NCBI RefSeq assembly: GCF_013347965.1
Contig: NZ_CP048810.1
Span: 1,302,001-1,366,000 of the forward strand
Length of the DNA: 64,000 nucleotides
Direction of reading: 5' to 3'
Source of the DNA: Pseudomonas bijieensis
Lineage (GTDB): Bacteria; Pseudomonadota; Gammaproteobacteria; Pseudomonadales; Pseudomonadaceae
In this document: in pieces, positions 1,993 through 13,472 of the stretch
How the letters are laid out: each line of letters opens with the position of its first letter
Position numbering within the stretch: the stretch's first letter is position 1
Notes under the pieces: generated by a model
The model's database searches: none
The model's input: the letters and a program-made list of their open reading frames with translations, nothing else
Told to the model about the DNA's origin: nothing
Position numbers and translations under genes: made by a program

Positions 1993-2367
1993 CATAGGCC
2001 GCCTTTTAATATGCCATCGCAAGCAAGATCGCGATGGCAACTGCGTTCATTTGAATGTGCACGCAACACAAACTTTCCGAGCACACCCGCCTTGAAACAC
2101 CGCTGTCAGATTATCTTTTTGATCCTTACTTAAAATAATATAAACATCCCAAACGGCGAGAATAGTAGAGAGAAACCACACTTTCAACAAAACAGTTACA
2201 TTCCTACACCCCCCTCCTACTCAACGGCAAGAACGAACCTACGTCAGCCTCGGAAGTCGCGCAATAGCCTTCACCCCACCCCAATGCTATTAATTAATCA
2301 CTTGCGAACAAACGCAAGTTGGGCGCTCGCCTCGCGACGCCCATTAACTACATTGGAGTAAATCGAC
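1993..2367 (+). other. Intergenic region between the kgu operon and the RiPP island
   Basis: This stretch marks a sharp change to AT-rich sequence. It opens with a hairpin at 2013-2038. Around 2119-2144 there is TTGATC followed by an A/T run containing TATAAA, a weak promoter candidate with short spacing. At 2318-2345 short self-complementary GC segments (GGGCG and CGCCC arms) could fold ahead of the peptide gene. No convincing gene was seen; a 25-codon frame ending just before 2360 lacks a ribosome binding site. Confidence 0.4.
2013..2038 (+). terminator. Hairpin after kguD, possible terminator or REP remnant
   Basis: GCCATCGC at 2013-2020 is exactly complementary to GCGATGGC at 2031-2038, giving an 8-bp stem with a 10-base loop. 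It lies 21 bases after the kguD stop. There is no T-run, and the sequence resembles the core of the local REP repeats, so it may be a repeat remnant rather than a true terminator. Confidence 0.4.
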
Positions 2368-2484
2368 ATGGGTAGGAAACGCTCTGAAATAAATAACACC
2401 TTCTTTGGCCTACCGCAGGCATTAGGCCTTTCTAAAGACCTCCTCGCAACAGAGGCCGATTTTTTTACGTCGCTGACCATCTAA
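2368..2484 (+). CDS. Candidate RiPP precursor peptide (38 residues)
   Basis: The ATG is preceded by a good ribosome binding site, GGAG at 2355-2358, about nine bases upstream. The 38-residue product begins MGRKRSEINN, has a hydrophobic middle (FFGLPQALGLSKDLL) and ends in TEADFFTSLTI. It contains Thr and Ser but no Cys. Small size, position directly ahead of a YcaO-family gene and an ABC exporter, and the shared AT-rich composition suggest a ribosomally made precursor whose C-terminal Thr/Ser residues could be modified. The basic, amphipathic N-terminal half would serve as leader. I do not recognise the peptide, and the leader/core border cannot be placed. Confidence 0.6.
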   Translation: MGRKRSEINNTFFGLPQALGLSKDLLATEADFFTSLTI

Positions 2485-2513
2485 GCCAGTGACCGATTAA
2501 TTATCGGCGAACA

Positions 2514-2541
2514 GATGCCGGAAGGATCTCCTTTCGGCATC
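2514..2541 (+). terminator. Strong hairpin between precursor and YcaO genes, possible attenuator
   Basis: Bases 2514-2525 (GATGCCGGAAGG) pair with 2530-2541 (CCTTTCGGCATC) in a 12-bp stem with one G-T pair and a 4-base loop, ATCT. A short CTTTAAT follows instead of a full T-run, so it looks more like a partial terminator or RNA-stabilising stem. RiPP operons often use such an element to make more precursor than enzyme. A second small palindrome, CCGAT-TAATT-ATCGG, lies at 2493-2507. Confidence 0.6.
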
Positions 2542-2558
2542 CTTTAATGGAGATCCAT

Positions 2559-3732
2559 ATGTCAGAACGAGAACTATCACCCACCGAAGCGCTATTCAAT
2601 ATCATGTCCACGCTGCATACACTGGGCCTCAGTGCAGTAACACGGTATACGACACCATCCAAGCTAGTAGCAACGGCCGAGCTGTTTGATGACAACGATA
2701 ACCTCGTTGAGTCGGGAGCAGGCAAGGGACCAGATTCACTAATAGGCGCACTGGCAGAAAGCATTGAACACTTCAGCACGTTCCAGCCTCTTACTGGTGC
2801 TCCTATACGATACCGTTCCGACAAAATAGCTACCCAAAAAGCAGTTACAGAAGATGGAATTTTTACCAGCCTGCCTCACACAGAAAATTTAATCGAATGC
2901 TTTCGACTTACCTCGCTCAACAACAATGAAGAACTATTCGCGCCGTGCGTCCTTCTATGCCCTAAAACGACGCAAAACATCCACAAAGATTCGAATTCCG
3001 CACTGCGCTTTCTATCTCGCTACTCATCAAACTCAGGAATTGCTTTTGGTTGCACAGAGAACGAAGCACTATTACATGGTGCCCACGAAACAATCGAGAG
3101 GCATATCCTGTCTCTTTTCTACATGACTGTCTGTGGCCTCGGTCCGGCAATGGAACTATACACACCTTCTGCCGCGTTGCTTCAAAACAGCGCTGAGGAG
3201 CCACCCCGCTGCCTTGGCGTCAGCGAACAGACTGCAAGTGATCATTATCAAGGACGTGCTGTCAGTTTATTTTGCAGTGGCTTTTCCCAAAGCGGGCCCT
3301 GGAGCTCACCATCTTTCACCCATTGGCTCCGGATGCTCGCTTGAAATCCATACTGCAATCCAAAGGGCAGTTACTGAACAATTCCAGTCCGAGGACTTAT
3401 ATGATGCCGCTGAAGAATCCATAGATAGAGAAACCTTTGATCTACTATCTAAATCAAGACACCTGAAACACTTGATTGACTTCGCACCCGTCACAACAGC
3501 AACACTCCCTACAATTGACGCCCCTGCACACATCAACTCTACAACAGTTTCCGCACAACTAGAAACGCTGCAAAAAAACCTATCAAACACTGGAATGAAA
3601 ATATTCCGCCGAACCGTAGCCCGCTTTTCAAGCAACAGCATCGTCACTCAAATTTATATTCCAGGACTTGAGCGCTTCAATATCATTAGAAACGGTCGCT
3701 TGGTGGTGCCACAGTACGTATTACGCGGTTGA
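2559..3732 (+). pseudogene. YcaO-family RiPP-modifying enzyme gene with an apparent +1 frameshift
   Basis: The first frame (ATG 2559, GGAG six bases upstream; an in-frame ATG at 2547 has no good site) runs to 3344. The second frame carries the rest to 3732. Dropping one C from CCCC at 3204-3207 joins them into 390 residues, a normal size for a YcaO cyclodehydratase. YcaO landmarks occur in both parts: GALAESIEH (63-71), NSGIAFGC and HETIERH (158-182), then GSGCSLEIHTAIQRAVTEQF (256-275) and IPGLERF (367-373). YcaO enzymes use ATP to activate backbone amides, forming azolines, amidines or thioamides in peptides. No partner protein gene is present. The break may be a true mutation, a sequencing error or programmed slippage. 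Confidence 0.8.
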
Positions 3733-3765
3733 ATTATCGAACACAAAGCAACCAGGAGCGAGTAC

Positions 3766-5481
3766 ATGCATAGTATCCGGGCAATGATAAAAAACGCCTA
3801 TAAAACACACACAAGACTTCTAGCAATGACTATAGCCACAATCATTGCACTCAAACTCATCACACTTGCCCCTCCACTGTTACTCGGAACCATCATCGAC
3901 ACCCTGCAAGGCAACAGAAACCCAGCATCCAACACTCTGCTCGCACTGACGACAGGTCTGATTGTCGCGGGGTGCATTCATGCCATCATCACTCCTCTGC
4001 AGCTCCATGCGCTATCTAAGTTGGTACAAAGCATTATCATGAACGCTTCCATTGAGTGGATCACCGAACTCATAGGCAAAGAGTTTTCGTTATTCAACTC
4101 TTGGAGAATCGGCCACTTCATAAAATCGGTCGAGCGCGGAATTACTGCACACGAACAACTACTCACTTTCCTTGTGACCATTGCGCTTCCCGTACTATTG
4201 GAATTCATAGTTGTTGGGACTGCTTTTATTTATATAGGTGGCGGTGAAATCTTTTTGAGCATGACGGCGCTCGGAGTTATCTATCTGGCTGCCACCCATC
4301 AAATTATCAAATGGCGGAGAAAGTACATCGATGCAGTCAATGAACAGGAAGATGAGTTAAGTGCCCACCTCTACAACACCCTCAACGCTGGAAAAATCAT
4401 AAAACTGGAAAGAGCCATACCTACTGCCCTGCGCCCGTTGAACGCGGCGTTCGGACGTTATGCCAACGCTGCGGTGACTACGGCATCATCTGGCGGCCTA
4501 CTGACCACCGCCAAGATACTGTTCGTAAGCCTTTCCACTGGGGGATTGCTCTACTGGGGCGTCGTGGACCAACTTTCGGGTCATCCCAGTATCAGTGTCG
4601 GACAGCTGGTTGCCATTTTTTCAATCGCGGGGAGTTATCTGCTCAGTATTTCAACCTTGACTGAAGGGTATCGTGTTCTTGATCAGTTCCTTGCAGACCA
4701 GCGTCAATTTCAGGGCCTGCTATCACTCCCGGATTTCGATCGCAGCAATCGGCTGGCCTGGGTTGATTTCCAGCGGCCCTCGGTTCTGGAACTCGGCCCC
4801 TGCGAAGTGGCAGGAACGGGACCGCTTCGCCTGTCGATCAAGCGCTCCCTGGCATTTGCTCAAGGGCAGTCAGTGGCTGTTACGGGCCCTAGCGGCGCAG
4901 GCAAAACCACTTTTTTGGAAGTTCTCGCCGGGCTTGATGCCTCAAAGCGAGACCAACTAAGTATCGACTCGGTACCGGTCTCACTTTTGTCCGGTCAAGC
5001 TCACTTGGACGCCTTGAGATACTGCCCCCAACAACCGCGGTTTCTGGAAGGCTCTTTTGAACAATCGGTTCTGTTCGGAGGCAGCGCATCGCCGATTTTG
5101 TCTAGAGCCATACGGCAATTGGAACTGGATGAGATCGTGACAACACGGCAGGTCAGCGAGAATGCATCGAATATCTCCGGAGGCGAAGCCAAACGCCTAT
5201 CCCTGCTGCGCCTGATCAACAAGCCCGGAAAATTCAATATGTTCGACGAGCCAAGCGCATCCATCGAACCCAGGCTGACCACGCCTCTTTGGGACCTGTT
5301 ATTCGACGTTTTTGCCGGGCAGGGGTTGATATGTGTCACCCATGACGTTGACCACCTGCATCGGTTTGACCGAGTCATTGTGATGCATGACGGGGCAATT
5401 GTGGAGGATGGTCCATGGCGGGAGCTGGTCGACAGGCCAGCAGTCAAGCTTCTGGTGGATGAGATTCGGACGCAGAACTAG
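3766..5481 (+). CDS. ABC transporter, fused permease and ATPase, probable RiPP exporter
   Basis: A 571-residue half-transporter. About six membrane segments occupy residues 15-310, followed by a nucleotide-binding domain with Walker A GPSGAGKTT (from residue 374), an ABC signature ISGGE (470-474, instead of LSGGQ), Walker B ending FDEPS (Asp494, Glu495) and the H-loop His at 526. There is no N-terminal C39 peptidase domain, so it should not cleave a leader itself. It starts 33 bases after the YcaO frame behind AGGAG. It probably exports the modified peptide and may give self-protection. The first half is AT-rich; the ATPase half is closer to the host composition. Confidence 0.85.
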   Translation: MHSIRAMIKNAYKTHTRLLAMTIATIIALKLITLAPPLLLGTIIDTLQGNRNPASNTLLALTTGLIVAGCIHAIITPLQLHALSKLVQSIIMNASIEWITELIGKEFSLFNSWRIGHFIKSVERGITAHEQLLTFLVTIALPVLLEFIVVGTAFIYIGGGEIFLSMTALGVIYLAATHQIIKWRRKYIDAVNEQEDELSAHLYNTLNAGKIIKLERAIPTALRPLNAAFGRYANAAVTTASSGGLLTTAKILFVSLSTGGLLYWGVVDQLSGHPSISVGQLVAIFSIAGSYLLSISTLTEGYRVLDQFLADQRQFQGLLSLPDFDRSNRLAWVDFQRPSVLELGPCEVAGTGPLRLSIKRSLAFAQGQSVAVTGPSGAGKTTFLEVLAGLDASKRDQLSIDSVPVSLLSGQAHLDALRYCPQQPRFLEGSFEQSVLFGGSASPILSRAIRQLELDEIVTTRQVSENASNISGGEAKRLSLLRLINKPGKFNMFDEPSASIEPRLTTPLWDLLFDVFAGQGLICVTHDVDHLHRFDRVIVMHDGAIVEDGPWRELVDRPAVKLLVDEIRTQN

Positions 5482-5591
5482 CGAAATAAGGTGCTGGATC
5501 TGCTGCCGTCATCGTCGGATCGCCGCCGAAGCAGGCTCGCTCCCAAGGTTTTGCGGTTTGCCCAGTATTTAAGGAATGACACAAGTCCCTT

Positions 5592-5722
5592 GTGGCGAGG
5601 GAGCTTGCTCCCGTTCGACTGGGCAGCAGTCGCAGGCCCGGCGGGCGCGGTATGTATGGGGAACCGCGCCGGCTCTGTTTGGGGCTGCTGCGCAGCCCAG
5701 CGGGAGCAAGCTCCCTCGCCAC
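5592..5722. repeat. REP doublet, GTGGCGAGGGAGC type
   Basis: The left arm at 5592-5613 (begins GTGGCGAGGGAGCTTGC) and right arm at 5701-5722 are exact reverse complements over 22 bases, separated by about 87 GC-rich bases. The same arms recur at 13552, 32622 and 44216. This matches Pseudomonas REP elements in inverted pairs, non-autonomous elements mobilised by RAYT-type transposases; none is encoded in the window. Confidence 0.9.
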
Positions 5723-5727
5723 GGGGG

Positions 5728-6096
5728 CTATGTCGACTGACGGGTTTCGATGTTGTCCAGTGCACGGTTCGCCAGCAGGCTGCCCAGTTCGATCAGTTGC
5801 TGAATGCCCAGGAGGAAATGCCGGCGTGAACCGTCCAGGTCGAAAGCCAGATCATTGGCCAGGGCATTGGCCGAAGCCAGGGTTTCGCTGAGGTTGGCAA
5901 GCAAGCTTTCGGTGTCGATGTCTTTGTTGACGGTGAAGAGTTGGCCGGGGGCAGGTTCTGCTTCGGGTTTGCCCGGTTTGGGGTTTAGGTAATGGTCGAG
6001 GACTCGGTCGGTGACTTCGTCGTGTTTTGGGGACTTGGTTTTTGGACGCGGTGAGGCCGGATCGGTGTCCGGGGGATTGGGGGTAGCTTTGAACAT
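5728..6096 (-). CDS. DUF6124 (formerly DUF3077) family protein
   Basis: A 122-residue protein with a Pro/Lys/Asp-rich N-terminal third (MFKATPNPPDTDPASP) and a helical C-terminal half, ESLLANLSETLASANALAND, ending in a helix rich in Leu and Ile. This is the pattern of the DUF6124/DUF3077 family, abundant and almost confined to Pseudomonas and of unknown function. The start follows an AGG-containing stretch and an unusual structured leader (6100-6320). The 3' end abuts a REP doublet. No enzymatic motif is visible. Confidence 0.8.
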   Translation of the reverse strand: MFKATPNPPDTDPASPRPKTKSPKHDEVTDRVLDHYLNPKPGKPEAEPAPGQLFTVNKDIDTESLLANLSETLASANALANDLAFDLDGSRRHFLLGIQQLIELGSLLANRALDNIETRQST

Positions 6097-6124
6097 AAAT
6101 AGAACCTCATGTGGGATAGGAGAA

Positions 6125-6180
6125 CCACCACCTCGCTACCAAACGAGGGTGGCGGCCATACGAAGGTTGGTAGACCGGCC
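6125..6180 (-). promoter_or_regulatory. Leader hairpin with TTTGGTAG loop, proximal copy
   Basis: Read on the minus strand, CCTCG-TTTGGTAG-CGAGG (6148-6131) forms a 5-bp stem with an 8-base loop just upstream of the DUF6124 gene. The loop can instead pair with CTACCAA at 6173-6167, so two alternative folds are possible, as in regulatory leaders. A near copy lies at 6284-6299. Confidence 0.5.
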
Positions 6181-6246
6181 CACATGAACTCCGGCGCGCT
6201 CGAGAGCGCCCTACGCATGGCCACCATCAATACAAATGCTGAGATG

Positions 6247-6320
6247 CACTTGTAACAAGTGACGCTTGCGTCATGTGGAGAGCCGGGCTACCAAACCCGA
6301 TCGCTGATTCATCAGCAACC
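6247..6320 (-). promoter_or_regulatory. Leader hairpin cluster with TTTGGTAG loop, distal copy
   Basis: On the minus strand, CGGG-TTTGGTAG-CCCG (6299-6284) repeats the proximal hairpin's loop exactly with a different but still complementary stem. Flanking it are GCTGA-TTCA-TCAGC (6303-6316), CACTTG-TAA-CAAGTG (6247-6261) and TGACG-CTTG-CGTCA (6260-6273). Both hairpins are followed by TCTCC and CACATGA-like blocks, so the unit appears duplicated. Confidence 0.5.
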
Positions 6321-6628
6321 CGGAAACGATAGAACCTGCCCCCCAAGCGCACAAGCCGGCGGATTCTGGCGCAGTTGTAGGCAATGGCGCAAGACCACGT
6401 AGCCTGTTCCAGAGCACTCCTACGTCCGGATAAACACCCCCCCATTTTGTGTGTACTTTGCAACTCAAGCGGGAGCAAACTCACCCCCACAATGCTTCCA
6501 AGCCGATCACAATTCACACGGCCGATCAAAATCCCGTTAGTCGCCACCCCCCGCCATGCATTAAAGTAACGCCCCCAGCCCCGGCGTTATCCGAACGCCT
6601 GGGCCACCCTTTCCAGGAACAGTCATCG
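6321..6628 (+). other. Intergenic region upstream of moxR
   Basis: About 300 bases separate the DUF6124 leader from the moxR start. The left part continues the GC-rich leader sequence on the minus strand; the right part holds C-rich runs (6437-6443) and should contain the promoter of the moxR-bat operon. No clear -35/-10 pair was found. Longer open frames on either strand here lack ribosome sites and recognisable protein features. Confidence 0.35.
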
Positions 6629-7588
<960 letters not shown>

Positions 7589-7597
7589 GCATGAGTC

Positions 7598-8542
7598 ATG
7601 AATAACCCACTGACGCCCGCACCGGGCATCCGCGTCAGCCTTTCGGAGCTGATCGAGATGCGCCATCGCGTGCGCGAGGTGCAGTTGTTCTCGACACCGG
7701 GCCAGCGCAGCCCGTTGATCGGCCTGCATCACTCCAAGCTGCGCGGACGCGGGGTGGACTTCGACCAGGTACGGGTCTACCAGGCCGGCGACGATGTGCG
7801 CACCATTGACTGGCGTGTCACCGCCCGGACCCAGGAGCCGCATACCAAACTGTTCCACGAAGAACGCGAGCGACCGATCTTCATCATGATCGAGCAAAGC
7901 CACCGGCTGTTCTTCGGCTCGGGGCTGATGTTCAAATCGGTGCTCGCCGCCCAGGCCGCCAGCCTGATCGGCTGGGCCGCGCTGGGACACAATGACCGGG
8001 TCGGCGGCCTGGTGTTCGGCAATAACACCCATTACGAGGTCAAACCGCGGCGCAGCAAACAGAGCCTGTTGCAATTGCTCAACCGGCTGGTGCGGGTCAA
8101 TCAGTCACTGCACACCGAGGGCGAGCCGGACCGCGACTCGTTCGGCATCGCCCTGCGCCGGGCCCGGGAAGTGCTGCGGCCCGGCAGCCTGGTGATCGTG
8201 ATTTGCGACGAGCGTGCGTTGTCCGACAGCGCCGAGCAGCAACTGAGCCTGCTGTCTCGCCATTGCGACCTGCTGCTGTTGCCGTTGTCGGACCCACTGG
8301 ACCATGCCCTGCCCGCCGCCGGCCTGTTGCGTTTCGCCCAACGTGGTTCACAGTTGGAGCTCGACACCCTGAATTTCGAACTGCGCCAGGCCTATCGCGC
8401 CCAGGCCGAGGCGCGCCAGGAGCGCTGGGAACTGCTGACGCAGAAACTGCGGATCCTGATGATGCCCTTGAGTACCCAGGGCGACATGGTCGAACAACTG
8501 CGTGAATACCTGAACCCCAAGCGGGCCGGGAAAAGCCGATGA
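7598..8542 (+). CDS. DUF58 domain-containing protein
   Basis: A 314-residue protein with the DUF58 hallmark GRGVDFDQVRVYQAGDDVR followed by TIDWRVTARTQEPHTKLF near residues 50-85. A VWA-like region follows (IFIMIEQSHRLFFGSG), and C-terminal helices. DUF58 proteins are the standard second gene of MoxR-VWA operons. It begins 9 bases after moxR and overlaps the next gene by 4 bases, implying translational coupling. It is predicted cytoplasmic, with no signal peptide, and likely bridges the ATPase to membrane VWA partners. Confidence 0.9.
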   Translation: MNNPLTPAPGIRVSLSELIEMRHRVREVQLFSTPGQRSPLIGLHHSKLRGRGVDFDQVRVYQAGDDVRTIDWRVTARTQEPHTKLFHEERERPIFIMIEQSHRLFFGSGLMFKSVLAAQAASLIGWAALGHNDRVGGLVFGNNTHYEVKPRRSKQSLLQLLNRLVRVNQSLHTEGEPDRDSFGIALRRAREVLRPGSLVIVICDERALSDSAEQQLSLLSRHCDLLLLPLSDPLDHALPAAGLLRFAQRGSQLELDTLNFELRQAYRAQAEARQERWELLTQKLRILMMPLSTQGDMVEQLREYLNPKRAGKSR

Positions 8543-9033
8543 GCAATCTGGATCAATTGCAGCCGCTGATGGCACCGCCCCCCATTGGTTTCTGGCCGCC
8601 CGCGCCAGGCTGGTGGTTGCTGCTGGTGGTATTGCCGTTGCTGGGTCTGGGGCTGTGGCAATTGCGCCGGTTCATTCCGACCCAGCGCACCACCGTCCGT
8701 AGCGAACAACCCCTGGACCCGGTGCGCCTGGCCGCCCTGGCCGAACTCGCCCGGCTGCCCAAGCCCTACGACGGCGCACCGGCCGGTGCCTGGCTGCAAC
8801 AGCTCAACGGACTGCTCAAGCGCCTGTGTCGCAACCATTATCCCTACAGCCAGAGCCACACCCTCAACGGGCGTAAATGGCTGGCCTTCCTGGATAACCG
8901 TTGCCCGGCCGCCGGCCTGACGCGCTGGATGGTACTGGTGGAAGGCGCCTACAAGCCCGAATGCAAGCTCGATGACAAAGCCATCGCCGGCCTGACCCAG
9001 GCGGTCGAAATCTGGATCCGCAAACATGTTTGA
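8539..9033 (+). CDS. DUF4381 domain-containing membrane protein
   Basis: A 164-residue protein with one strong membrane segment at about residues 22-42 (PGWWLLLVVLPLLGLGLWQL) and a soluble C-terminal domain containing RLPKPYDGAPAGAWLQQLNG, as in DUF4381 proteins of MoxR-Bat operons. ATGA overlaps the DUF58 stop, and its own end overlaps batA by 8 bases. The function is unknown; its location suggests a membrane anchor within the MoxR-Bat complex. Confidence 0.85.
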   Translation: MSNLDQLQPLMAPPPIGFWPPAPGWWLLLVVLPLLGLGLWQLRRFIPTQRTTVRSEQPLDPVRLAALAELARLPKPYDGAPAGAWLQQLNGLLKRLCRNHYPYSQSHTLNGRKWLAFLDNRCPAAGLTRWMVLVEGAYKPECKLDDKAIAGLTQAVEIWIRKHV

Positions 9034-10105
9034 GTTCGCCTGGCCGTGGGTGTTCGCCCTGTTGCCGCTGCCCTGGCTGATGCGCCTGGTGCTGCCGGCG
9101 GCCGACAGTGGCGAGCCGGCGCTCAAGGTCAGCTTCCTTGGGGACCTGGAAGGCCTGGTGGGCCGTCGAGCCCGGGCCAATCTGCCGACCTGGCGGCAAC
9201 AGGCGCCCTTTATCCTGCTTTGGCTGCTGTTGCTGATCGCCGCGGCACGACCGCAGTGGCTGGGGGAGCCGTTGCCCATTGCCGCCAGCGGCCGTGATCT
9301 GTTGGTGGCGGTGGATGTCTCGGGCTCCATGGACTTTCCCGACATGCAGTGGAAAGACGAAGAAGTCAGTCGCCTCGCGCTGGTCCAGCATATGCTCGGG
9401 GACTTTCTCGAAGGGCGCGAAGGTGACCGGGTCGGCCTGATCCTGTTCGGCAGCCAGGCCTACTTGCAGGCACCGCTGACTTTCGACCGGCGCACCGTGC
9501 GCCATTGGCTCGATGAGGCGCGCATCGGCATTGCCGGCAAGAATACCGCCATCGGCGACGCCATTGGCCTGGCCCTCAAGCGCCTGCGCCAGCGGCCGGC
9601 CCACAGTCGCGTACTGATCCTGGTTACCGACGGTGCCAACAACGGCGGCGAAATCGATCCGCTGACCGCCGCGCGTCTGGCCGCCGATGAAGGCGTGAAA
9701 ATCTACCCGATCGGCATCGGTGCCGACCCGGAACAAAGCGGCACGGCAGGCTTTCTCGGTGTCAACCCGAGCCTGGACCTCGACGAAGCGACCCTCAAGG
9801 ACATTGCCCAGGCTACCGGCGGCCGCTATTTTCGGGCCCAGGACGGTGAGCAATTGTTGGCGATCAAGACCACCCTCGACCAGCTCGAACCGGTGACCCA
9901 GCAACCGACCCAGGCCCGCCCGGCCCTGGCGCTGTATCACTGGCCCCTGGCCGTGGCCCTGCTGCTGAGCATGTTGCTGGTGGCCCGGGCGCGCTGGCCG
10001 GACAATCCGTTGCAGCGCCTGTTCAACCAGCCGCTGTTCCAGCCGGCCCAACACACCGAGTGGCGCCAGCGGCTCAAGCGCCTGCGCTTGCGGAGGCGTC
10101 GATGA
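9026..10105 (+). CDS. batA: BatA-like von Willebrand factor A domain membrane protein
   Basis: A 359-residue protein with a membrane segment at the N-terminus (WVFALLPLPWLMRLVL) and another before the VWA domain (FILLWLLLLIAAA). The intact MIDAS motif is DVSGSMDFPD (near residue 97), with LVTDGANNGGE as the later metal-site loop. A C-terminal hydrophobic helix follows (WPLAVALLLSMLLVA). The VWA domain would bind divalent metal and a protein ligand on the periplasmic side. It overlaps both neighbours by 4-8 bases. Confidence 0.9.
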   Translation: MFEFAWPWVFALLPLPWLMRLVLPAADSGEPALKVSFLGDLEGLVGRRARANLPTWRQQAPFILLWLLLLIAAARPQWLGEPLPIAASGRDLLVAVDVSGSMDFPDMQWKDEEVSRLALVQHMLGDFLEGREGDRVGLILFGSQAYLQAPLTFDRRTVRHWLDEARIGIAGKNTAIGDAIGLALKRLRQRPAHSRVLILVTDGANNGGEIDPLTAARLAADEGVKIYPIGIGADPEQSGTAGFLGVNPSLDLDEATLKDIAQATGGRYFRAQDGEQLLAIKTTLDQLEPVTQQPTQARPALALYHWPLAVALLLSMLLVARARWPDNPLQRLFNQPLFQPAQHTEWRQRLKRLRLRRRR

Positions 10106-11838
10106 TCGCCCTCTGGCCACACTGGCTGCGCCCCTGGTTCGTGTTGCTGCTGCCGTTGCTGGGCTGGTTGCTCTGGCAACTGTGGCATCGACAGAAACGG
10201 GTGGGCCGCTGGCAGATGATCCTGCCGCCGGCCTTCCATGCCGTGCTGCTCAGCGGTGGCAGCGGCCGTGAAAGCCGGTTGCCATGGATTGCCCTGGGCC
10301 TGGGTTGGCTGTTGATCGTGCTGGCGTTGCTGGGGCCGAGCTGGGCGCGGGTCGAACAGACCAGCCAGAAACCCGCCGACCCGCTGGTGGTGGTACTGGA
10401 ACTGACCCCGGAAATGCTCGCCACCGATGTCCCGCCCACGCGCCTGGAACAAGCCCGGCGCAAGGTCCTGGACCTGCTGCACAACCGCAGCGATGCCCAG
10501 ACCGCGATCATCGTCTATGCCGGCAGCGCCCACACGCTGGTGCCGCTGTCCGACGACCTGTCCACCAGCGCCAACCTGCTCGAAGCCCTCGCCCCGTCGA
10601 TCATGCCCCAAGGCGGTCATCGTGCCGACCTGGCGGTCCACAAGGCCATGGCCCTGCTAGATCAGGGTGAGCTCGGCCACGGCCGGATCCTGCTGATCGG
10701 CTCGTCGCTGAACGAGCAGGAACGTGCAGGCATTCGCCAGGTACTGGATGGTTCCGCCACCCAATGGCTGATGCTGGGTATCGGTACCCGGGAAGGCGCA
10801 CCGGTGGCCCAGGAAGATGGCAGTTACCTCAAGGATGCCCAGGGTGCGATCCTGGTGCCACGGTTGGACAGCCCGGCCCTCAAGGCCTTCGCCAACGAGT
10901 TGGACGGCCGCTACCGGCCGGCGCGGCTGGACGATAGCGACCTGCGTGGCCTGGGCCTGCTGGACGGTCCTCGCCACCTGCGCAGCGATGGGCAAACGTT
11001 GCGCCTGGACACCTGGGCCGACCAGGGCTATTGGCTGCTCCTGCCCCTGTTGCTGCTAGCCGCCTGCGCCGGGCGGCGAGGCTGGCTGTTCTGCCTGCCG
11101 TTGCTGTTCGTGTTGCCGCAGACTGGCCACGCCTTCGAATTCCAGGACCTGTGGTTGCGCGCCGACCAACAGGGCCAGCACTTACTCAAGCAAAAACGCC
11201 CCGCCGAGGCCGCCGCGCATTTCGAGGACAGCCAGTGGCAAGGTGTTGCCCTGTACGAAGCTGGCCAATACAGCGAAGCCGCCCGGCGCTTCGCCGAAGG
11301 CAACGACGCCCGCGCGCACTACAATCGTGGCAACGCCCTGGCCCGCAGCGGTGAACTGGAAGCAGCGCTGGATGCCTATGAGCAAGCCCTGGAGTTGCAG
11401 CCCGACCTGCGCCCTGCCCAGACCAACAGGGCTCTGGTGCAGAGCCTGTTGAACGAGCAGGCACCGCCGGCGCAAGAACCCAAGCCCGACGAAAGCAAGG
11501 AACCGGGCCCCGCCGAGCAAGCGCCGGATGCCGATTCACCCAGCCAGTCTTCCGAACCGGGGCAGCCCTCCTCCGAGGCAACCGCGACGCCGGACGAATC
11601 CCAGCCCCCGCGAACGGCACAACCGCCCACCGCCCAGGATGTACCGGGCAGCGAGCTACCGGACGAGCAGACCACCACCCCGCCGCTGCGCCCCGCCGCC
11701 GGCCAGCGCAATGAAGAAGAACAACGCCAGGCCCTGGAACAATGGCTGCGCCAGATCCCGGACAATCCTGGCGAGCTGCTCAGGCGTAAATTCTGGTATG
11801 AACAGCAAAGCCATCAGGCCCAGGGAAAAACCCCATGA
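10102..11838 (+). CDS. batB: BatB/BatC-like VWA and TPR fusion protein
   Basis: A 578-residue protein starting at the ATG preceded by GGAGG six bases upstream. Two N-terminal membrane helices precede a VWA domain whose MIDAS is degenerate: LELTPEMLATD where DxSxS is expected. After a third hydrophobic stretch near residues 312-345 come TPR units (AAHFEDSQWQGVALYEAGQY, AHYNRGNALARSGELEAALD) and a long Pro/Glu/Gln-rich low-complexity tail. It therefore joins the BatB and BatC functions of other bacteria. The altered MIDAS may prevent metal binding and leave this subunit structural. Confidence 0.85.
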   Translation: MIALWPHWLRPWFVLLLPLLGWLLWQLWHRQKRVGRWQMILPPAFHAVLLSGGSGRESRLPWIALGLGWLLIVLALLGPSWARVEQTSQKPADPLVVVLELTPEMLATDVPPTRLEQARRKVLDLLHNRSDAQTAIIVYAGSAHTLVPLSDDLSTSANLLEALAPSIMPQGGHRADLAVHKAMALLDQGELGHGRILLIGSSLNEQERAGIRQVLDGSATQWLMLGIGTREGAPVAQEDGSYLKDAQGAILVPRLDSPALKAFANELDGRYRPARLDDSDLRGLGLLDGPRHLRSDGQTLRLDTWADQGYWLLLPLLLLAACAGRRGWLFCLPLLFVLPQTGHAFEFQDLWLRADQQGQHLLKQKRPAEAAAHFEDSQWQGVALYEAGQYSEAARRFAEGNDARAHYNRGNALARSGELEAALDAYEQALELQPDLRPAQTNRALVQSLLNEQAPPAQEPKPDESKEPGPAEQAPDADSPSQSSEPGQPSSEATATPDESQPPRTAQPPTAQDVPGSELPDEQTTTPPLRPAAGQRNEEEQRQALEQWLRQIPDNPGELLRRKFWYEQQSHQAQGKTP

Positions 11839-13472
11839 CCCGCTTCACCGCCTACCTACTCATCTTGCTGCTCTGGGCCTCTGGAACCCAGGCTGCACAG
11901 CTGACTGCCAGTGTCGATCGCAGCCGCCTGAACTCCGGGGAAACGGTGGAACTGACCCTGGAATCCAACGATGCCACGTTGTTCGGCAAACCCGACCTCG
12001 GCCCGCTCCAGGCCCTGTTCGACGTGCGCGGCACCCGCCAGGTCAACCAGTTGACGACCCTCGACGGTGAGAACCGCGCCACCACCCGCTGGATCATTAC
12101 CCTGCTGCCACGCCAGAGCGGCACCGTGATCATTCCCCCGCTGCAACTGGGCGAGGTGACCAGCCAGCCGATCACCTTGCAAGTGATCGAAAGCGAAACC
12201 CGCAACGCATCGGGGACCCTGGCGCCGGTGTTCATCGAGGCCAGTCTCGACCAGACCCACGTGTACGTGCAGGCCCAGGCGATCCTGACCCTGCGCATCT
12301 ACCATTCGGTGTCGCTGTACGACGACAGCAGCCTGACGCCGTTGCACATCCCCGATGCTCGCACCGAACAACTGGGCGAATCGCGCACTTATGAAAAGGT
12401 CATCAACGATGTGCGCCACGGCGTGATCGAACTGCGCTACGGCATCTACCCGCAGCGCAGCGGTGAACTGACGATTCCGGCCCAGACCTTCAGCGCCACC
12501 CTGGTCGAGCCGGTGGCCCAGGACGCGGTGCCTTCGGGGCCGAAACCCGGCCAACTGATGCGCGTCAGTTCCGAGCAACTGCGGCTGACCGTCAACCCCA
12601 AGCCCGCCAGCTACCCAGCCGATGTGCCCTGGCTGCCAGCACGCAGTCTGTCCTTGAGCGAGAGCTGGAGCCCCGAACCGACTCACAGCCAGGTCGGCGA
12701 TTCCCTGACCCGCAGCCTGACCCTGGAAGCCGAAGGCCTGGCCAGTGCCCAGTTGCCGCCCCTCCCGGCCACCGAGATCAATGGCTTGCGGCGCTATCCG
12801 GACCAGCCGGTACTCAGCAGCCGCAGCAGTGAACGCGGGCTGGTGGGCAGCCGCGAAGACCGCGAGGCGCTGGTGCCCAACCGCAGCGGCACCATCGAAT
12901 TGCCACCGGTGGAAGTGGTCTGGTGGAACACCCTGGAAGACCACCTGGACCGCACCAGCCTGCCGGCGCGGACCCTGCAAGTGGCGAACAACCCAAACCT
13001 GATGGTGGATACGCCGGCGGGTACGGCGCAGATCGTGACGACGGTCGACAGCGAGACCCTGTGGTATTGGCAACTGAGCACTTTCATCCTGGCTTGCACG
13101 ACACTGCTCGGCTTTGGCTTGTGGTGGCGCGCCCGTTGGCAACCGGCCATCCTGCGCTCGACCCAGGCCGGGCCGAGCCCGCGCACTCTGCTGGACGACC
13201 TCAAGCGCGCCTGCCTGGCCAACGATCCACACGCCACCCGCCAGGCCCTGGACGCCTGGGCCCGGCAGCAACCGGAAACCCTGGCCGACATGGCCGCGCG
13301 GTTCGTGCCGTTGTCCGACGCCCTCGACGGCCTCAACGGCGCGCTCTACAGCGAAACCGGCCAGCATTGGCAAGGCGAAGACCTGTGGCGGGCCATTCGC
13401 ACCATCCCGCCCACCGAAGGGGCGCTGGATTCGGCCGGTGATTCGGGATTGCCGCCGCTTTATCCTAAATAA
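11835..13472 (+). CDS. batD: BatD-like periplasmic protein
   Basis: A 545-residue protein with an N-terminal signal peptide (FTAYLLILLLWASGTQA, cleavage near residue 20). A long beta-rich periplasmic region follows, containing QLTASVDRSRLNSGETVELT, typical of BatD/oxygen-tolerance proteins. One membrane helix (WQLSTFILACTTLLGFGLWW) precedes a cytoplasmic helical tail. It is the last gene of the operon, overlapping batB by 4 bases. Bat proteins were first linked to aerotolerance in Bacteroides; in Pseudomonas they are thought to act in envelope stress, which is inference here. Confidence 0.88.
   Translation: MTRFTAYLLILLLWASGTQAAQLTASVDRSRLNSGETVELTLESNDATLFGKPDLGPLQALFDVRGTRQVNQLTTLDGENRATTRWIITLLPRQSGTVIIPPLQLGEVTSQPITLQVIESETRNASGTLAPVFIEASLDQTHVYVQAQAILTLRIYHSVSLYDDSSLTPLHIPDARTEQLGESRTYEKVINDVRHGVIELRYGIYPQRSGELTIPAQTFSATLVEPVAQDAVPSGPKPGQLMRVSSEQLRLTVNPKPASYPADVPWLPARSLSLSESWSPEPTHSQVGDSLTRSLTLEAEGLASAQLPPLPATEINGLRRYPDQPVLSSRSSERGLVGSREDREALVPNRSGTIELPPVEVVWWNTLEDHLDRTSLPARTLQVANNPNLMVDTPAGTAQIVTTVDSETLWYWQLSTFILACTTLLGFGLWWRARWQPAILRSTQAGPSPRTLLDDLKRACLANDPHATRQALDAWARQQPETLADMAARFVPLSDALDGLNGALYSETGQHWQGEDLWRAIRTIPPTEGALDSAGDSGLPPLYPK

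What the first reader, a model, noticed from the sequence alone, without database searches (positions are those of the whole stretch)
2368..5481. Possible undescribed minimal YcaO RiPP cluster: 38-residue precursor, YcaO enzyme, ABC exporter
Three AT-rich genes in one direction between core genes fit a compact RiPP operon. The sequence shows a YcaO-family enzyme, a half-transporter ATPase without protease domain, and an upstream 38-codon gene with a good ribosome site. Family knowledge says YcaO enzymes modify peptide backbones using ATP. The peptide has no Cys, and no dehydrogenase, E1-like partner or TfuA is present, so the product would be an unusual stand-alone YcaO modification such as Ser/Thr azolines or an amidine. 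I cannot match the peptide to a known class.
Basis: partly seen in the sequence, partly recalled or inferred. Interest (0 to 1): 0.88.

Follow-up and report, generated by a model that had tools for sequence, protein, structure and literature searches.

The report
Three-gene YcaO peptide operon in Pseudomonas
A very small bacterial operon encodes a tiny peptide, one YcaO enzyme that probably modifies the peptide's start, and a pump that probably exports it; the set is conserved in many Pseudomonas and in some Vibrio plasmids, although the enzyme gene is broken in this particular genome.

Summary
The triad is real: a 38-codon gene (2368-2484), a YcaO gene (2559-3732) and an ABC exporter without peptidase domain (3766-5481), in one direction and low in GC. 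Its start, MGx(K/R)R(S/T)E(I/V), is nearly fixed; a peptide-first scan of 298 genomes found no convincing orphan copy. The precursor is under purifying selection, and in Pseudomonas a hairpin with compensatory changes separates it from ycaO. Only ycaO and the ABC gene recur in all 29 neighbourhoods compared. I read it as a minimal RiPP system with a stand-alone YcaO. The likeliest, unproven mechanism is ATP-dependent ring closure at the peptide's N terminus (Gly freed by Met removal, near an invariant Ser/Thr), with the C-terminal block as follower, as in bottromycin. No description was found in the open-licence papers searched. New variant of a known kind.

The parts
2288..2294 (+). TATTAAT, -10-like element (weak candidate)
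   Evidence: similar position in the alignment of upstream regions; the sigma-70 consensus scan did not report it
2300..2343 (+). two adjacent inverted repeats (2300-2319, 2320-2343), probable 5' hairpins of the precursor mRNA
   Evidence: folds; in 16 of 26 sequences chosen, 5 of 10 pairs with changes on both sides; the 10 left out include 8 in which the pattern is different or unclear
2355..2358 (+). ribosome binding site GGAG of the precursor gene
   Evidence: sequence; a Shine-Dalgarno-like motif in 29 of 29 loci tested
2368..2484 (+). precursor peptide gene, 38 aa: N block MGRKRSEI, variable middle, C block EADFF
2514..2541 (+). intergenic hairpin between precursor and ycaO, 12 pairs
   Evidence: z -4.4 for the whole spacer, 10 of 10 consensus pairs with a compensatory change in at least one of 22 sequences
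2559..3732 (+). ycaO gene, reading frame broken here (N part 2559-3344, C part in another frame to 3732); intact 390-aa homologues in close relatives
3766..5481 (+). ABC exporter, 571 aa, transmembrane and ATPase domains, no peptidase domain

Best explanation
A minimal RiPP operon. The short peptide (32-43 residues in most loci) is the substrate of the stand-alone YcaO encoded next to it, and the ABC exporter pumps the product out and may give self-protection. Proposed mechanism: the housekeeping methionine aminopeptidase removes Met1 and frees Gly. The YcaO, using ATP, activates a backbone amide in the N-terminal segment G-x-(K/R)-R-(S/T)-E-(I/V) and removes water (-18 Da), giving either an amidine closed by the Gly amine or an Arg-Ser/Thr oxazoline. 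The C-terminal block (E-x-x-F-F/Y/L) serves as a follower for enzyme recognition and may be trimmed later by a general protease. Shown: gene set, conservation, purifying selection, spacer hairpin, ATP-site motifs in intact relatives, no other recurring neighbour. Inferred: that the peptide is the substrate, the site, the chemistry, the export and any protection. In this strain the pathway is predicted to be silent unless the frame break is a sequence error.
For: Peptide gene in 31 of 31 loci. In 30 peptides G2, R5 and E7 are 30 of 30 and position 6 is S 24 / T 6; the 30 motif hits among 6,904 short ORFs all lie directly upstream of a family-1 ycaO. Without any motif, ribosome site plus position gives exactly one candidate, this peptide, in 28 of 29 loci (none in the deleted L059). 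Peptide-first scan of 298 genomes: precursors in 19, each beside family-1 genes. Vibrio YcaO is about 31% identical, yet the octapeptide differs from the window's only at position 3. dN/dS of the precursor is 0.06-0.20. E67/E70, E177/E180-R181 and E273/Q276 are invariant in 18 of 18 intact enzymes. Sister YcaO genes also have adjacent short ORFs starting MG: family 2, 15 of 17 loci by ribosome site and position, 16 of 17 when picked with an M[GS]Y pattern; Pantoea/Acinetobacter, Streptomyces and Nonomuraea. Background: Gly second in 4 of 42 and 9 of 331 long ORFs. In bottromycin the core is N-terminal, Gly1 is proposed to attack a backbone amide, Met removal comes first and the follower seems to be required (PMC5103208, passages).
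Against: No biochemical or mass-spectrometric data. The N block could be a leader or an export signal. The C block is conserved too (29 of 30), and the residue before its Glu is S/T in 22 of 29, so a Ser/Thr there could also be modified. No follower-removing hydrolase recurs, whereas bottromycin has one. The best solved match is MJ1094 and the second-best NCBIfam model is a thioamidation family, so thioamidation (+16 Da) is possible. The Nonomuraea peptide was picked among 13 listed frames and the Streptomyces one among two; one family-2 peptide starts MS; two family-2 loci give no candidate by ribosome site. The enzyme is broken in 4 of 28 Pseudomonas loci, so the function is dispensable in some lineages.
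Confidence: 0.5

Rival explanations
1. Conventional leader-core RiPP: MGxKR(S/T)EI is the recognition leader (or export signal) and the YcaO modifies residues in the variable middle or the conserved C-terminal segment; the product is the C-terminal part.
For: Most RiPPs are built this way (recalled knowledge); the middle varies as cores often do; the C block is conserved in 29 of 30 and is preceded by S/T in 22 of 29; peptides hold 2-9 Ser/Thr outside the N block.
Against: Cys occurs in only 5 of 30. The residue before the C block is not S/T in L041, L049, L105, L109 and the three Vibrio peptides, whereas position 6 is S/T in 30 of 30; the N block sits at the start codon in 30 of 30. No protease domain in the exporter.
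Confidence: 0.28
2. The YcaO thioamidates a backbone amide of the peptide (+16 Da) rather than dehydrating it.
For: Best profile match in PDB is MJ1094 (E 7.6e-12), by recall a relative of the McrA thioamidation enzymes; 18 of 18 members match TIGR03266 at E <= 0.01; no PxPxP.
Against: The match is far below the curated cut-off (36 against 365 bits for the member shown); the PDB match covers profile positions 159-347; the generic YcaO model TIGR00702 scores higher; no recurring neighbour that could be TfuA.
Confidence: 0.12
3. The short ORF is a regulatory leader peptide with an attenuator hairpin controlling ycaO-ABC, not a substrate.
For: Short ORF followed by a strongly supported hairpin before the next gene.
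Against: No terminator was called at the hairpin; two Vibrio loci keep the peptide but lack the hairpin; the whole peptide is constrained, most at its far N terminus; sister YcaO genes have unrelated adjacent peptides.
Confidence: 0.05
4. Not exclusive of the above: the window copy is decaying and has no function in this strain, its ycaO being a pseudogene.
For: Frame break; other broken copies in L042, L059 and L161.
Against: dN/dS of the part after the break is not raised (0.14-0.16 against four close relatives; 0.11-0.21 among the intact copies), so the break is recent or a sequence error.
Confidence: 0.5

Closest known systems
Bottromycin (Streptomyces; two YcaO enzymes without cyclodehydratase partner)
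   Same: no E1-like partner; precursor starts MG; N-terminal core and C-terminal follower (PMC5103208, passages)
   Different: here one YcaO, mostly no Cys, and no recurring methyltransferase, M17 peptidase, P450 or amidohydrolase; an ABC exporter; precursor sequence unlike
Streptamidine family (stand-alone YcaO, amidine)
   Same: stand-alone YcaO; precursors without Ser/Thr/Cys-rich regions; a Ser of the core conserved in motif A precursors (PMC8442711, passages)
   Different: larger clusters with dehydrogenase, hydrolase, iron transporter genes and two ABC transporters; Actinobacteria and six Firmicutes; core is central
MJ1094-type archaeal YcaO; E. coli YcaO, studied in connection with uL16 thioamidation (PMC13063428, passages)
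   Same: MJ1094 is the best PDB profile match; no RRE partner (recalled)
   Different: substrates are large proteins; the match is confined to profile positions 159-347
Microcin B17-like clusters of Pseudomonas (PMC8719888, passages)
   Same: YcaO RiPP in the same genus
   Different: cyclodehydratase and dehydrogenase partners, which do not recur here; Gly-rich cyclised core (PMC4603692, passages)
Family 2 of this study (Pseudomonas, MGYMxSWNAN-type peptide beside a YcaO)
   Same: related YcaO (about 28-37% identity to the window's N part); adjacent peptides starting MG
   Different: no adjacent ABC exporter of this kind; other peptide; separate side of the tree (100/97)

Membership tests
YcaO superfamily (PF02624) | match above the Pfam cut-off and intact ATP/Mg-binding Glu/Gln motifs | tested here: met
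   45 and 42.5 bits for the two window parts against 25.7; motifs invariant in 18 of 18 intact relatives; the role of the motifs is recalled
YcaO-dependent RiPP | short precursor gene conserved beside the YcaO | tested here: met
   31 of 31 loci; motif-free check 28 of 29
YcaO-dependent RiPP | peptide chemically modified by the YcaO | not testable with these tools
   needs expression and mass spectrometry
Azol(in)e-forming LAP/TOMM (SagD/McbD type) | E1-like/ocin-ThiF partner and flavin dehydrogenase encoded nearby | tested here: not met
   no gene except ycaO and ABC recurs in more than 9 of 29 neighbourhoods; neighbours were not all scanned with Pfam
Azol(in)e-forming LAP/TOMM (SagD/McbD type) | Pro-rich C terminus PxPxP (recalled) | tested here: not met
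   0 of 18 rows of A2
Azol(in)e-forming LAP/TOMM (SagD/McbD type) | score over TIGR03604 | tested here: not met
   34 bits for the member shown against a cut-off of 219.25
Thioamitide / TfuA-YcaO | TfuA gene adjacent | tested here: not met
   no recurring neighbour other than the ABC gene; none annotated beside the Vibrio loci
Bottromycin | bottromycin precursor family NF033414 | tested here: inconclusive
   no NCBIfam match to the window peptide and no hit in the own genome, but the model rang in none of the 14 control genomes
Bottromycin | N-terminal core starting Gly after Met removal | not testable with these tools
   MG start in 30 of 30 is consistent; product unknown
Peptidase-containing ABC exporter (PCAT) | N-terminal C39 peptidase domain | tested here: not met
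   no such domain among the Pfam matches

The most novel reading that the evidence does not exclude
A new RiPP class with a three-gene system: a leaderless precursor whose N-terminal Gly, freed by the housekeeping methionine aminopeptidase, is cyclised by one partnerless YcaO onto the amide just before an invariant Ser/Thr (macroamidine, or an oxazoline of that Ser/Thr), directed by a C-terminal follower. The MG-start rule would extend to sister YcaO groups in Pseudomonas, Pantoea/Acinetobacter and actinobacteria, making N-terminal cyclisation the common trait of a large uncharted YcaO branch.
Probability: 0.35. Interest if true: 0.78.

Novelty: new variant of a known kind. Interest (0 to 1): 0.62.

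Why it matters
Many stand-alone YcaO enzymes have no known substrate. Here the likely substrate, enzyme and exporter come as a set of about 3 kb with a nearly fixed N-terminal motif, so the reaction can be tested directly by co-expressing two genes from an intact relative. If the N-terminal reading holds, it gives a simple model for YcaO chemistry without partner proteins and a rule (MG start, adjacent short ORF) for finding more such peptides.

Tried and rejected
Rejected: peptide as chance ORF (conserved and under purifying selection). Other matches of the DNA pattern as orphan precursors: three fetched MGRKRSEI copies are 10-residue frames without a ribosome site (G000, G039, G289; a fourth with the same DNA, G209, was not fetched), one MGRKRTEI is a 17-residue frame (G086), and one MGVKRSEI is a 53-residue frame without the C block or a YcaO match on its contig (G081 C22). 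Phage origin (no match in phage records). Known RNA family at the hairpins (no Rfam match at E <= 0.5 in 2000-5800). Bottromycin precursor family (no control rang). Scans of the class (2 of 369 genomes, own included; the other, L110 on a 5.9-kb contig, has a long-branch YcaO and showed no MGxKR peptide or ABC) and of the phylum (1 of 349, the own one) suggest the family is rare outside Pseudomonas; the Vibrio members came from the plasmid collection. Literature searches listed nothing that describes it; no paper held KRSEI together with RiPP and YcaO (15 of 325 two-term papers were listed, none with KRSEI). Open-licence papers only.

Limits: one genome per species, so I could not see whether the frame break is shared by other strains. 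The family-1 peptides and the family-2 peptides were picked with patterns; the motif-free check was made afterwards. Rows left out: WIN, L042, L059 from the enzyme alignment and tree, and L161, found later; L059, L068, L069 from hairpin covariation; one search had 22 of 26 Pseudomonas spacers, trimmed to the hairpin and its downstream side (L032, L033, L035, L107 omitted as near-copies); one search had 16 of 26 upstream regions (L032, L035 as near-copies; L045, L047, L049, L105-L109 because they fold differently or unclearly, which favours the structure). Neighbour clustering used ORFs of 70 aa or more chosen greedily by length, so antisense frames can hide true genes and smaller genes were not seen. 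Three of the 19 genomes put in family 2 by score (G720, G722, G742) and the second match of G272 were not looked at.
Full report
What is there. Window 2368-5481 holds three co-directional genes between a 2-hydroxyacid dehydrogenase gene (1015-1992) and a convergent DUF6124 gene (5728-6096, minus strand). GC is 0.46-0.56 in most 500-base windows of the triad against 0.61-0.69 at 1-2000 and 6500-13000. The 38-codon gene has GGAG nine bases before its ATG. The ABC protein (571 aa) has a transmembrane and an ATPase domain and no peptidase domain. The YcaO gene begins at 2559 but is not one frame: the N part is open to 3344 and matches PF02624 9-147, and the C part in another frame to 3732 matches 190-325. 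Against four close relatives the window gene differs by a net one base in length, and the intact copies there are 390 residues. It is the only PF02624 match in the genome.

Relatives. With the N part as query, 35 of 298 Pseudomonas genomes match at E <= 1e-10. With the profile A2, 44 of 398 match at E <= 1e-30: 24 belong to the family of the window (E <= 1e-80, own genome included), one (G115) is a remnant of it, and 19 fall by score with a sister family, family 2. G272, whose contig length is that of the P. agronomica record, has a second match at family-2 level, not looked at. Outside the genus: 2 of 369 genomes of the class including the own one, 1 of 349 of the phylum, the own one, no phage record, and 8 plasmid records. 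Three of those are Vibrio, with 30-32% identity over 98% of the query and an ABC gene directly downstream.

The peptide. All 27 Pseudomonas loci first examined and the three Vibrio loci have the peptide gene directly upstream of ycaO; a remnant found later, L161, also has it, making 31 of 31. In 30 sequences, positions 1, 2, 5 and 7 are M, G, R, E in 30 of 30; position 4 is K 22/R 8, position 6 S 24/T 6, position 8 I 29/V 1, position 3 R, S, K or N. A C-terminal block E-x-x-F-(F/Y/L) is found in 29 of 30; the exception, L059, appears to have lost the peptide's end and the enzyme's N part by deletion. The residue before that block is S/T in 22 of 29. Cys occurs in 5 of 30. Scanning 810 kb on both strands, 6,904 ATG frames of 25-75 residues (nested starts counted) gave 30 hits to MG.[KR]R[ST]E[IV], all of them these genes. 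Because some picks had used the motif, I repeated the choice with ribosome site and position only: exactly one candidate, this peptide, in 28 of 29 loci and none in L059. A DNA-pattern scan of 298 genomes starting from the peptide found precursors in 19 genomes, the same that carry the YcaO family or its remnant. The remaining pattern matches do not look like precursors: most encode MG(K/R)QRWEI, four carry an exact MGRKRSEI (three fetched, 10-residue frames, one of them in the window's own genome), and single 17- and 53-residue frames lie elsewhere in G086 and G081.

Selection. Against six relatives, dN/dS (NG86; dS above 1 for the two most distant in most comparisons) of the precursor is 0.06-0.20, of the YcaO N part 0.06-0.18, of the YcaO C part 0.09-0.16 and of the ABC gene 0.12-0.15. 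The part after the frame break is not evolving faster, so the break is recent or a sequence error. The enzyme is also broken in L042 (premature stop), L059 and L161 (only the part from about profile position 249 matches): 4 of 28 Pseudomonas loci counting the window.

RNA. Between precursor and ycaO, 26 Pseudomonas spacers were folded: a hairpin of differing sequence is predicted in all, with z between -1.8 and -7.0 in 25 and about 0 in L046. On 22 of the 26, trimmed to the hairpin and its downstream side, the consensus has 10 pairs, each with a compensatory double change in at least one sequence (up to 5 of 22 sequences break a given pair). The two Vibrio loci tested (L068, L069) lack it. It was not called a terminator. 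It may raise precursor over enzyme levels or stabilise the precursor mRNA; this is inference. The 5' region shows hairpins in a chosen 16 of 26 sequences (5 of 10 pairs with double changes); eight of those left out fold differently or unclearly. No Rfam family matches.

Unit. Clustering the neighbouring ORFs of 29 loci (27 Pseudomonas, 2 Vibrio), only ycaO and the ABC gene recur in 29; the next cluster recurs in 9 (limits in Tried and rejected). There are several chromosomal settings: beside moxR/DUF58 genes in 11 of the 26 other Pseudomonas loci tested, and another shared setting in six (L045, L049, L059, L106-L108). So the recurring unit is precursor, YcaO and exporter; no linked protease, flavin dehydrogenase, E1-like protein, TfuA or methyltransferase recurs.

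Enzyme. Eighteen intact sequences keep three acidic motifs, by recall the YcaO ATP site, and a C-terminal P-x-x-x-R-F-x-x-I-R-x-G-x-x-V-x-P signature; PxPxP occurs in 0 of 18. The best solved relative is MJ1094 (E 7.6e-12), then MusD, LynD and TruD. NCBIfam models match below cut-off for the member shown. The tree puts the window family plus Vibrio on one side and family 2 with the remaining rows on the other (100/97); it is rooted at the midpoint only, and the tool warns of long branches and uneven composition.

Why the N terminus. The octapeptide is the most conserved part and sits at the start codon in 30 of 30, even between Pseudomonas and Vibrio. Position 6 is the only one outside which no Ser/Thr is universal. 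Sister YcaO groups carry unlike adjacent peptides that also begin MG: family 2, 15 of 17 loci by ribosome site and position and 16 of 17 picked by pattern, the other starting MS; Pantoea and Acinetobacter, the same peptide; Streptomyces, one of two frames listed and the annotated one; Nonomuraea, one of 13 frames listed. Background is 4 of 42 and 9 of 331 long ORFs with Gly second (longest frames from the first ATG, so approximate). In bottromycin the N terminus of the precursor becomes the product, Gly1 is proposed to attack a backbone amide, Met must be removed first, and the macrocyclising YcaO and its partner seem to need the follower (PMC5103208, passages). I therefore favour N-terminal ring closure, at even odds overall; a conventional leader-core reading and thioamidation remain open.

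Literature. Searches listed no paper describing this unit. Passages, and one whole section, were read in PMC8719888, PMC12636437, PMC13063428, PMC8442711, PMC10885120, PMC5103208, PMC9784478, PMC7136475 and PMC4603692; none mentions it in what I saw. PMC4603692 (2015) says that the substrates of YcaO proteins outside TOMM clusters were unknown (section 16). Subscription papers were not searchable.

Verdict. A real, conserved, minimal YcaO operon, most likely for a RiPP. The chemistry is untested.

Noticed in passing
L050-L058, L060-L067 (family 2), e.g. L055:7307-10531: Related Pseudomonas system: peptide of the type MGYMxSWNAN...LQLTEEEQAEL, YcaO, and in L055 a methyltransferase and an alpha/beta hydrolase, with no ABC exporter of the window's kind adjacent; possibly another undescribed RiPP family.
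   Followed up: partly
L071:3661-6888 (Pantoea plasmid), same peptide in L125:2661-2792 (Acinetobacter plasmid): MG-starting 43-aa peptide, YcaO, methyltransferase and, in L071, a FeeM-type N-acyl amino acid synthase protein; shared by plasmids of different genera.
   Followed up: partly
L124:3128-3244 (Nonomuraea): Unannotated 38-aa ORF MGNVVDYVSVASLDRW... reaching into the upstream end of a YcaO frame.
   Followed up: no
window 2200-2260 and homologous positions: CCTAC...GGAAGT-like motif upstream of the precursor in many Pseudomonas loci, possibly a regulator site.
   Followed up: no
window 5490-6300: Intergenic and DUF6124 region with 34 matches in the own genome and many in relatives, a repeated sequence family.
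   Followed up: no
L069:7658-9181 (Vibrio plasmid): The gene next to the Vibrio YcaO-ABC pair, on the opposite strand, is annotated as a TcdA/TcdB-type glycosyltransferase domain protein.
   Followed up: no
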